Assembly (NCBI GenBank): GCA_947476295.1
Contig: CANJQC010000025.1
Span: 1-51,475 of the forward strand
DNA length: 51,475 bases
DNA from: Planctomycetaceae bacterium
GTDB lineage: Bacteria > Planctomycetota > Planctomycetia > Planctomycetales > Planctomycetaceae
Direction: 5' to 3'
The notes below the pieces were generated by a model. That model had not been told where the DNA came from. It saw only the letters and a list, made by a program, of their open reading frames with translations, and made no database searches. Positions 46,621 to 49,281 of this stretch are shown here, piece by piece. The translations under genes were made by a program, and so were the position numbers. Numbering within the stretch: the first letter of the stretch is position 1; each line of letters opens with the position of its first letter.

Positions 46621-49281
46621 ATGACTCTAAAGCTCTCAACCACAACCTTTCACAGGACCCAGACATCGGTCACGATCCCGGCTGTGTTGCGGTCACGATC
46701 GATCGCTGCGCGCAACGTGCCGGTCGTTGCTAGTTTGTGCCTGCCAAAAGGCCGTCTGACCACCGCAGCCATCGGCCATGTCGCAGGATTTGAAGCCAAC
46801 ATCGCCGCGCAGTTTGAAGTGCTCAATCGCTGGCACGACGGCAGTGTTCGCTGGTTGCTGACCAGTTTAATCGCTCCGGAAGTCAGCAGTCACGGTTGCG
46901 AGTTGAGTGTTGTCGCCTTATGTGAAAAACAATCACAGAAAAGCCCTGCTTCCAACTGCGTTACAACCATGAAGTCTATTCCAAGTGAGATCCAAGTCAT
47001 CACTCGCGATACAATTAACGATTCGCCGGTTGAGAGAACTCTGCGTCTTACGCCATGTCTTCGCGACATCAGCGGCGCGGAACTGCCGTTGCAGATCGAC
47101 CGAATCCGCGAAGAGGTCAATGGCGCGATCCGGCAAGTCTGCGTTGTCGCAGTGCGAATTCCGTCGGTACCGTTCGTCACACTCCAGCTACGTCTCACGC
47201 ACTGGGCGTCAGCCGGACTGTTACATGTTGAAACTCGCCTCCGCAATACGCGACGCGCCAAACATGTCGGAGGACTGTGGGATCTTGGCGATGCCGGATC
47301 ATTTTTGTTTTGCAGCCTAGAAATTGCCGTCGCGAGCGATGAGATTTCGGCCAACGCTGCGACGCACTGGAAGGCCGAACCTGATCATTCACTCTGTTCA
47401 ACGTCGTCTGATATCCGGTTGCTGCAATTCGACAGCGGTGGTCCGTTCTGGAACAGCGCAAATCACGTCACTGCGTCCGGGCAAATTGATGTTCCGGGGC
47501 GAGGCTATGAAGTAACGACTGACAGTCATTCGACGCAGGGAAATCGCGCGGAACCCACATTTTTGGTCGAAGGTGATTCATCGTTCCTCGCAGCCGCCGT
47601 TCCGGAATTCTGGCAACAGTCCCCCGGCAGCATCGCAACCGCAACGGGTATTCTCGAAGTGGGCCTGTTCCCGGCATTGCCTCCCGTCACGTACGAACTT
47701 CAGGGCGGTGAACAAAAAACGTTATCATTCTGGCTGGCCACAGGTCCCGGCAAAGGAAACATCAATGGTCTTGATTGGGTGCATGACGCGCCGCGCTTGC
47801 TGCAATCCGCCCCATCGATCGCCGATGCAAAGGTCTTTCCGTGGTTTGGCGGTCATCGTAGGGTGGGACCAGCGGCAACGCCGCGCCGGCCCACCGATGG
47901 TGGCACCGTGATAGCCGACGCAACATCACGTCTTGCCGACTACCTGCACGACGCCACTTCCGGTGACTTCAGCCTGGAAGCACGGCGCGACTCAATCGAC
48001 GAATATGGCTGGAGAAATTTCGGTGACGTTCCTGCCGATCACGAACAGACTCATTACGCTGGTTCTAAGACGATTGTGTCTCACTACAACAATCAGTTCG
48101 ACATGATCTTCGGCAGTATTCTGCAACTGGCATCGACCTCCGACCTCAAGTGGTTCGACATGCTTGATCCGCTGGCTCGACATGTGATGGATATCGACAT
48201 CTATCACACGAATGAAGATCGAGCGGCCTTCAATGGCGGTTTGTTCTGGCACACCGATCATTACGTCGATGCACATTCGAGTACTCATCGCACATATTCC
48301 CGGAAAAATCAAAAGCCCGGCCAACCCTACGGCGGCGGGCCAGGCTGCGAACACAACTACACGACCGGGTTACTGCACTATTATTATCTGACCGGAAACC
48401 CGGAAGCACGGGAATCTGTGCTGTCGCTGGCCGATTGGGTAATCCAGATGGACGACGGCCGCAACACGGTTTTCGGACTGCTCGACAATGGGCCGACCGG
48501 CGCTGCTTCCGCAACCGTGTCTGAAAATTTCCACGGACCAGGCCGCGGCGCCGGCAATTCCATGAATGCCTTGCTTGATGCGTGGCTGCTTACAAACGCA
48601 GGCCACTATCTGCATAAGCTCGAAGAACTCATCCGTCGCTGCGTGCATCCACGCCAGGATCCCGACGACCTGCATTTACTCGACGCCGAAGATCATTGGT
48701 CGTACACCGTGTTCCTGAGTTCACTCGGACGATATCTGCTCGCCAAACGCGATGCCGAGATGTTCGATGCCATGTATTCGTACTCCCGCGATGTGATGAA
48801 AACCTACGGCCGCTGGATGGCCACCAACGAACGTCGCACGCTTGATCGCCCCGAAGAATTGCAGTATCCGACCGAAGCTTGGGCCGCTCAGGATTTTCGC
48901 AAAGCCAACGTACTGCGCATCGCCAGTTCGTGTGAAGATGATGTCTCGCATGCTGTCGCGATGCGAACTAGAGCCAATGCCATCAGCGAGGCCGCATGGA
49001 AGGACATGTCAGCGTTTGGGCCTGCTCGACTGAACGCTCGATGCCTGTCAATCCTGATGACTGAAGGCCATCGTGACATCTTTCACCGTACATGCGAACC
49101 GATGCTGATTCCGGCATGTCCGGCAACTTACGATGTCGGTCCATGGTCGATGTTCGTGCCGCAGAAGCAACGGATTAAGAAATTGATGCATTCACCGAGG
49201 CGATTAATTGAGGCCAGCATCGGGGTGTTTAGTCCAGATCGTTTAATCAGTGCATGGAGGGCACTGCGGAGGCAGATCTAG
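46621..49281 (+). CDS. PcRGLX/YetA-like polysaccharide-active protein (exo-rhamnogalacturonan-lyase-like)
   Basis: 886 residues, 19 bases after asnB. No signal peptide is evident. The N-terminal part ('VPVVASLCLPKGRLTTAAI', 'AAQFEVLNRWHDGSVRWLL') matches the beta-barrel start of PcRGLX/YetA-type proteins, which are exo-acting lyases on rhamnogalacturonan. The centre is an (alpha/alpha) barrel-like region with 'GWRNFGDVPADHEQ', 'SHYNNQFDMIFGSILQLA', 'HVMDIDIYHTNEDRAAFNG', 'HTDHYVDAHSSTHRTYSR' and 'GGGPGCEHNYTTGLLHYYY'. These His/Tyr/Asp-rich blocks are likely to line the active cleft. It plausibly trims or remodels the polysaccharide made by this locus; I cannot tell lyase from hydrolase. A palindromic element sits in frame at 47855-47898. 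Confidence 0.75.
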   Translation: MTLKLSTTTFHRTQTSVTIPAVLRSRSIAARNVPVVASLCLPKGRLTTAAIGHVAGFEANIAAQFEVLNRWHDGSVRWLLTSLIAPEVSSHGCELSVVALCEKQSQKSPASNCVTTMKSIPSEIQVITRDTINDSPVERTLRLTPCLRDISGAELPLQIDRIREEVNGAIRQVCVVAVRIPSVPFVTLQLRLTHWASAGLLHVETRLRNTRRAKHVGGLWDLGDAGSFLFCSLEIAVASDEISANAATHWKAEPDHSLCSTSSDIRLLQFDSGGPFWNSANHVTASGQIDVPGRGYEVTTDSHSTQGNRAEPTFLVEGDSSFLAAAVPEFWQQSPGSIATATGILEVGLFPALPPVTYELQGGEQKTLSFWLATGPGKGNINGLDWVHDAPRLLQSAPSIADAKVFPWFGGHRRVGPAATPRRPTDGGTVIADATSRLADYLHDATSGDFSLEARRDSIDEYGWRNFGDVPADHEQTHYAGSKTIVSHYNNQFDMIFGSILQLASTSDLKWFDMLDPLARHVMDIDIYHTNEDRAAFNGGLFWHTDHYVDAHSSTHRTYSRKNQKPGQPYGGGPGCEHNYTTGLLHYYYLTGNPEARESVLSLADWVIQMDDGRNTVFGLLDNGPTGAASATVSENFHGPGRGAGNSMNALLDAWLLTNAGHYLHKLEELIRRCVHPRQDPDDLHLLDAEDHWSYTVFLSSLGRYLLAKRDAEMFDAMYSYSRDVMKTYGRWMATNERRTLDRPEELQYPTEAWAAQDFRKANVLRIASSCEDDVSHAVAMRTRANAISEAAWKDMSAFGPARLNARCLSILMTEGHRDIFHRTCEPMLIPACPATYDVGPWSMFVPQKQRIKKLMHSPRRLIEASIGVFSPDRLISAWRALRRQI
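47855..47898. repeat. 44-base palindromic element inside coding sequence
   Basis: A nested inverted repeat: outer ATCG/CGAT, then GGTGGGACC against GGCCCACC (one bulge), and the inner hairpin GCGGC-AAC-GCCGC. It lies in frame in the 46621-49281 gene and encodes a basic, low-complexity stretch, residues 412-427 ('HRRVGPAATPRRPTDG'), unlike the flanking protein. REP-like hairpins with GGTGGG/CCCACC stems are common between genes in many bacteria; here one lies within a gene. Confidence 0.7.

What the first reader, a model, noticed from the sequence alone, without database searches (positions are those of the whole stretch)
47855..47898. A REP-like palindromic element is embedded in frame in a polysaccharide-active enzyme
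The 44-base element folds on itself (GGTGGGACC against GGCCCACC, with inner GCGGC-AAC-GCCGC) and is translated as a basic, Pro/Arg-rich segment (residues 412-427) between two ordinary protein blocks. Palindromic elements inserted into proteins are well known in Rickettsia (RPEs) but to my knowledge are not a described habit of Planctomycetota. Together with 9558, 50886 and possibly 19181, it suggests an element family that spreads through both genes and gaps.
Basis: partly seen in the sequence, partly recalled or inferred. Interest (0 to 1): 0.72.

Follow-up and report, generated by a model that had tools for sequence, protein, structure and literature searches.

The report
RAYT-type REP repeat inside an enzyme gene
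A 38-base mobile palindromic repeat (a REP element of the kind spread by RAYT transposases) sits in frame in a loop of a planctomycete polysaccharide lyase-like gene, and the same repeat family sits in frame in at least six other genes of this genome, some of them shared with a sister species; in-gene REPs were already known elsewhere, so this is a new instance rather than a new kind.

Summary
Window 47858-47895 is a GTAG-headed REP, GTAGGGTGGGACCAGCGGC-AAC-GCCGCGCCGGCCCACC, in frame (residues 413-425) in an 886-residue gene whose model resembles PL26 exo-rhamnogalacturonan lyase. The own genome holds 94 copies of its 16-base head, many as inverted pairs (REPINs). A RAYT transposase gene bracketed by the same REP occurs in this genome and in three relatives. 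Of 60 elements examined, seven lie in frame inside genes (window gene, UvrA, HypF, SNF2 helicase, ceramidase/LamG protein, glycosyltransferase, unknown exported protein); the rest are extragenic or not demonstrably coding. Relatives lack the segment or carry unrelated sequence in the same variable loop. Four insertions are shared, still open, with a sister species. There the inserted peptide shows relaxed protein constraint (dN/dS 0.54 against 0.10 in flanks), while REP DNA changes more slowly than flanking synonymous sites. Best reading: a RAYT-mobilised REP tolerated in a disordered loop, otherwise neutral. In-frame intragenic GTAG-REPs, including in uvrA and in the PVC group, were described in 2013, so this is a new member of a known kind.

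The parts
47858..47895 (+). single REP element: GTAG head, outer stem GGTGGG/CCCACC, inner stem GCGGC-AAC-GCCGC; reads ...(R)RVGPAATPRRPT... in frame
   Evidence: 94 head copies in own genome, aligned copies, covariation
46621..49281 (+). host gene, 886 aa, PL26 exo-rhamnogalacturonan-lyase-like fold (beta domain 16-376, alpha/alpha domain 429-885)
   Evidence: ORF and translation; homologues in planctomycete genomes; AF2 model pLDDT 81.9; Foldseek to 5xqg/5xq3 E 7.5e-17, TM 0.54
47830..47905 (+). loop between the two domains that holds the REP-encoded residues (404-428); pLDDT below 50 at 417-429; anchor-to-anchor length 59 aa against a family median of 41 (anchors lie outside this stretch)

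Best explanation
The 44-base feature is one member of a GTAG-type REP family of this planctomycete genus. The family is most likely mobilised in trans by a RAYT (Y1/HUH tyrosine transposase) whose gene is itself bracketed by the same REP. REPs and REPINs land mostly between genes. Those that land in a variable surface loop, in one of the two stop-free frames and with a net length divisible by three, are tolerated and inherited as short basic, Pro/Gly/Ala-rich peptide inserts. In the window gene the insert lies in a disordered loop between the beta domain and the alpha/alpha domain of a PL26-like lyase, and it most likely has no function of its own. Shown here: family, copy number, RAYT-REP linkage, in-frame residence in several genes, absence from homologues, and survival in frame in two species. 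Inferred: RAYT-catalysed movement and neutrality for the enzyme.
For: Family and copies. The RAYT gene P0002 scores 173.5 bits to NCBIfam REP_Tyr_transpos (cut-off 80) and has REPs on both sides in G000 and in the orthologues of G015, G016 and G010. RAYT orthologues occur in 5 of 7 REP-bearing genomes and in 0 of 11 REP-poor ones, Fisher p 0.0025. In-frame copies in seven genes of G000 with codon signal or Pfam domains on both sides; orthologues without the insert. Four insertions shared in frame with G015 (UvrA, ceramidase/LamG, SNF2, GT). All 7 independent in-gene REPINs have length 1 mod 3 (88, 91, 100 b), against 16 of 68 other REPINs. Outside genes, long REPINs are open in two of three frames (15 and 16 of 19), so they are ready-made in-frame inserts. 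Insert dN/dS 0.54 against 0.10 in flanks. The window insert is in a pLDDT<50 loop, with the loop 59 aa against a family median of 41.
Against: The window copy is a lone REP, not a REPIN, and lone REPs are usually thought to be relics that no longer move (own knowledge). No exact empty site could be recovered, because the loop is variable in every close relative, so insertion boundaries and target rule are not shown. G006 and G017 have REPs but no RAYT match in their incomplete assemblies. Slow synonymous change inside the shared REPINs is not expected under plain neutrality.
Confidence: 0.87

Rival explanations
1. The REP-encoded peptide was kept because it helps the protein, that is, mobile DNA was recruited as new protein sequence (a functional linker or a basic patch).
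For: Four inserts remained open and in frame in two species; UvrA-type genes were hit repeatedly in other phyla too (PMC3733652).
Against: Insert pN 0.068 exceeds flank pN 0.046 and insert dN/dS is 0.54; two different reading frames give unrelated peptides (VGWDQ... and RRVGPA...); relatives do without it; the loop is predicted disordered.
Confidence: 0.07
2. The in-gene REP is maintained as DNA (RAYT or gyrase binding site, gene conversion with other REPs, or an mRNA hairpin that tunes expression) rather than as protein.
For: Synonymous sites inside the four shared REPINs differ at 12% against 35% in flanks, Fisher p 1.7e-7; REP arms differ 6%, spacer 17%.
Against: Only four loci and one species pair; GC-rich palindromes may mutate differently; orthologous intergenic REPINs were not compared as a control; no shared insertion was found for the window gene.
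Confidence: 0.2
3. It is a chance GC-rich hairpin in a variable coding loop, not an inserted element.
For: Hairpin energy is ordinary for the composition; the loop is variable anyway.
Against: 38 b match a 94-copy family including the unpaired GTAG head.
Confidence: 0.01
4. It is a Rickettsia-type RPE or an unrelated MITE with terminal inverted repeats.
For: Same in-frame habit as RPEs; the short REPIN subtype is often nested in a TIR element.
Against: GTAG head, not CGTC; RAYT gene flanked by the REP; in-gene copies have no TIR.
Confidence: 0.02

Closest known systems
Intragenic GTAG-REPs (Di Nocera, De Gregorio, Rocco 2013, PMC3733652; Opitutus terrae, Thioalkalivibrio, Thauera and others)
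   Same: GTAG-headed REPs and head-to-head dimers inside ORFs, coding 20-30 aa, uvrA among the hosts; explained there by flexible linkers
   Different: Here a planctomycete genus with another stem sequence; orthologue comparison shows shared and species-specific insertions, length 1 mod 3, and rates of change, which I did not see in the parts of that paper I read (its supplements were not available)
REP/RAYT and REPIN systems (Nunvar 2010, PMC2817692; REPIN population model PMC8049555)
   Same: GTAG head, imperfect palindrome, inverted pairs, RAYT gene bracketed by two inverted REPs; close in sequence to Enterobacter sakazakii GTAGGGtGGGTAAGCGcAGCGCACCCaCC and Haemophilus GTAGGGTGGGCTTcAGCCCACC
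   Different: Two REPIN length classes; the short one (77-78 b) is often nested in a further inverted repeat
Rickettsia palindromic elements (RPE; Ogata 2000, reviewed in PMC2229807)
   Same: Palindromic element translated in frame within conserved proteins, with neutral or mild effect
   Different: RPEs are 105-146 bp, and RPE-4/6 carry a CGTC tag with no dedicated transposase known; here GTAG tag and RAYT

Membership tests
GTAG-type REP | unpaired GTAG head next to an imperfect palindrome of 20-40 b | tested here: met
GTAG-type REP | dispersed in many copies, mostly extragenic | tested here: met
   94 heads; 53 of 60 elements not demonstrably in a CDS
GTAG-type REP | cognate RAYT gene flanked by the same REPs in inverted orientation | tested here: met
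   L037/L202 REPs at 27- and 616+, RAYT 47-661-; L203, L204, L205 alike
GTAG-type REP | movement catalysed by RAYT | not testable with these tools
   needs experiment
REPIN | two REPs in inverted orientation with a spacer | tested here: not met
   the window copy is a lone REP; no second half downstream. Six of the seven in-gene copies of the genome are REPINs
Intragenic REP (PMC3733652) | REP wholly inside a real ORF of >120 aa, open and in frame | tested here: met
   886-aa ORF, codon signal both sides, homologues cover both sides
Rickettsia RPE | RPE-4/6-type CGTC tag, or 105-146 bp palindrome with 12-bp TIR | tested here: not met
   38 b, GTAG tag
PL26 exo-rhamnogalacturonan lyase (host protein) | fold of PL26 | tested here: met
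   Foldseek 5xqg E 7.5e-17, TM 0.54, 11% identity; model built from 25 sequences
PL26 exo-rhamnogalacturonan lyase (host protein) | catalytic residues and lyase activity | not tested
   no sequence hit to PDB, Pfam or NCBIfam above cut-off

The most novel reading that the evidence does not exclude
REPs inside genes are not dead relics but are kept as DNA, by gene conversion with, or selection as, RAYT target sites, so that coding sequence and a selfish hairpin evolve under joint constraint, with inserts entering genes directly in frame because REPINs of length 1 mod 3 add a multiple of three.
Probability: 0.2. Interest if true: 0.62.

Novelty: new member of a known kind. Interest (0 to 1): 0.42.

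Why it matters
It shows with orthologues, not only with a single genome, that RAYT-type REPs and REPINs enter conserved proteins (UvrA, HypF, a SNF2 helicase, a PL26-like lyase) in frame and, at four sites, stay there across speciation. That makes a planctomycete genus, with two REP-rich and several REP-poor sister species, a good place to test whether such inserts are neutral, and how RAYTs choose targets. The REPIN arms change more slowly than synonymous sites, which is a measurable hint of DNA-level maintenance.

Tried and rejected
Sites 9558, 50886 and 19181 as family members: no second copies. A decayed second REP behind the window copy: 65% of random window stretches score as well. Target-site duplication: flanking dinucleotides of in-gene REPINs do not match (sequences). 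Exact empty sites: UvrA and ceramidase/LamG of G002 lack the REPIN but differ in the flanks as well (script stopped before the last pairs); a chimeric search with flanks gave no clean empty site, and only part of the intended query (six of 18 loci or so, the last incomplete) was sent. Several ORF-spanning REPs near ORF starts (C237, C131, C170, C14, C37, C59, C80, C6) were left out of the in-gene count, as they may be upstream of the true start. An earlier Pfam call failed on coordinates and was repeated.

Full report
What is there. The 886-residue ORF 46621-49281 contains, at 47858-47895, GTAGGGTGGGACCAGCGGCAACGCCGCGCCGGCCCACC. It reads in frame as part of ...GGHRRVGPAATPRRPTDGG... (residues 413-425). 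The hairpin on its own is not remarkable for its composition (z -0.94). A search of the own genome (5.99 Mb, 252 contigs; the window is contig 25) found 64 matches of the 86-b surrounding query. The 16-b head GTAGGGTGGGACNAGC occurs 94 times with at most one mismatch, against 2 for the reversed control. Aligned copies share the unpaired GTAG head and an imperfect two-part palindrome. In 18 copies 92.6% of stem cells pair, with 5 pairs showing double changes (shuffled 2.3; slid controls at most 55%). This is a REP family.

Its transposase. Of eleven Y1_Tnp ORFs in the genome, one (P0002, contig 19) has the REP on both sides in inverted orientation and is a REP_Tyr_transpos equivalog (173.5 bits, cut-off 80). 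Orthologues in G015, G016 and G010 have the same bracket. In the genus, RAYT orthologues (three more of 82-84% identity, plus a 49% relative in G001) occur only in genomes that carry REPs: 5 of 7 against 0 of 11 (p 0.0025). Two REP-bearing genomes without a RAYT match are incomplete assemblies. The head pattern occurs in 73 of 170 genomes and 25 of 58 genera of the family, often at one or two copies that may be chance.

In-gene copies. I classified 60 elements of the own genome and 42 of the REP-rich sister G015 by codon signal on both sides; the glycosyltransferase case was added by reading frame and orthologues. Seven in G000 are in frame inside genes: the window gene (lone REP), UvrA of double length, HypF, an SNF2 helicase, a ceramidase/LamG/DUF7133 protein, a family-2 glycosyltransferase, and an exported protein without Pfam match. 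No clear frame-breaking insertion was seen, and the rest are extragenic or not demonstrably coding; in a coding-dense genome this means strong depletion from genes. Orthologues from the genus show that the insert is absent elsewhere, or replaced by other sequence, in the same variable loop. The UvrA, ceramidase/LamG, SNF2 and GT insertions are shared with G015, and G015 carries a second REPIN in the ceramidase/LamG gene that G000 lacks. In HypF, G010 carries a different lone REP of the GTGTG subtype in the same loop, so that loop was entered at least twice.

The window gene. Thirty-one loci encode relatives of the protein, nearly all planctomycete MAGs. Between two conserved anchors the loop is 59 residues here, 39 in the nearest relative and 41 in the family median; four other homologues also reach 58-60 with unrelated sequence. 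None of these relatives carries the REP. An AlphaFold2 model (mean pLDDT 81.9) puts the REP-encoded residues in a loop with pLDDT below 50 between a beta domain and an alpha/alpha domain. The fold matches PL26 exo-rhamnogalacturonan lyase (E 7.5e-17, TM 0.54). The low pLDDT may partly reflect the lack of homologues at the insert.

How it probably works. REPINs here lack stops in two of three frames (15 and 16 of 19 long non-coding ones; the third reads TAG in the head). All seven independent in-gene REPINs (six in G000, one more in G015) have a length of 1 mod 3, against 16 of 68 others (0.24^7, about 4e-5; against the long class alone 9 of 18, p 0.008). This test was devised after seeing the data. 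It suggests that the net insertion is length minus 4, minus 1 or plus 2, but the exact event is not resolved; no target-site duplication is visible. Between G000 and G015 the shared inserts have dN/dS 0.54 (flanks 0.10) and pN 0.068 (flanks 0.046), so the peptide is not guarded as protein. Yet synonymous sites inside the inserts differ by only 12% against 35% in the flanks (p 1.7e-7), and REP arms (6%) less than the spacer (17%). The mechanism I favour is RAYT-driven insertion, purifying loss of harmful cases, and neutral retention in disordered loops. The slow arms leave room for gene conversion or DNA-level selection.

Against the literature. Di Nocera and colleagues (PMC3733652) described GTAG- and CGTC-tagged REPs, GTAG-REPs in Planctomycetes (R. 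baltica among them), and in-gene REPs and dimers coding 20-30 residues, most numerous in Opitutus terrae and including uvrA. They also proposed flexible linkers as the reason for tolerance. RPEs of Rickettsia (reviewed in PMC2229807) share the habit but not the tag or the transposase. The present case is therefore a new member of a known kind, with better comparative evidence. Additional file 3 of PMC3733652 could not be read here, so I cannot say whether in-gene REPs of R. baltica were already listed.

Noticed in passing
e.g. L066 1468-1625, L069 1463-1621, L092 1982-2139: The short (77-78 b) REPIN subtype is often nested inside a larger inverted repeat, CACGGCTGGCCA[AG]TTTGTGAAT...ATTCACAAA[TC]TGGCCAGCCGTG: 28 of 41 short REPINs have it on at least one side, 0 of 8 long in-gene REPINs.
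   Followed up: partly
L191 (reverse strand, offset 706-750), L184 723-810, L185 766-785: The HypF (YrdC-domain) loop that holds a REPIN in the own genome holds a lone REP of another subtype in G010 and a CCCTCACCCC...CCCTCTCCC repeat-like segment in G015: one loop, several repeat families.
   Followed up: partly
L159, L170 (C179 orthologues): Where the own genome has a REPIN in the exported protein, G015 and G002 have a peptide SEISNLKSQIA/SEISNPKSPIA; the G015 DNA is an AATCTCA-type minisatellite.
   Followed up: no
L044-L046, loop of the P0001 homologues: The same loop of the PL26-like protein holds SSELNSQGTLNSELS in three relatives, itself repeat-like.
   Followed up: no
L208 1-265 (G000 C165): The last 34 residues of the RAYT at a contig edge, followed directly by a REPIN: a second RAYT copy or the other end of a broken contig.
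   Followed up: no
L071 and L065, around the REPs, upstream of the genes: A second repeat-like segment (GGLTPLRSP/GGLTPYRSP in translation) near REPs of contigs 237 and 131.
   Followed up: no
L062, L135: UvrA is of double length (about 2,490-2,550 aa open frame) and its REPIN lies in a linker between ABC-type and UvrA-interaction parts; uvrA is also a reported REP host in Opitutus terrae and Thioalkalivibrio (PMC3733652).
   Followed up: partly
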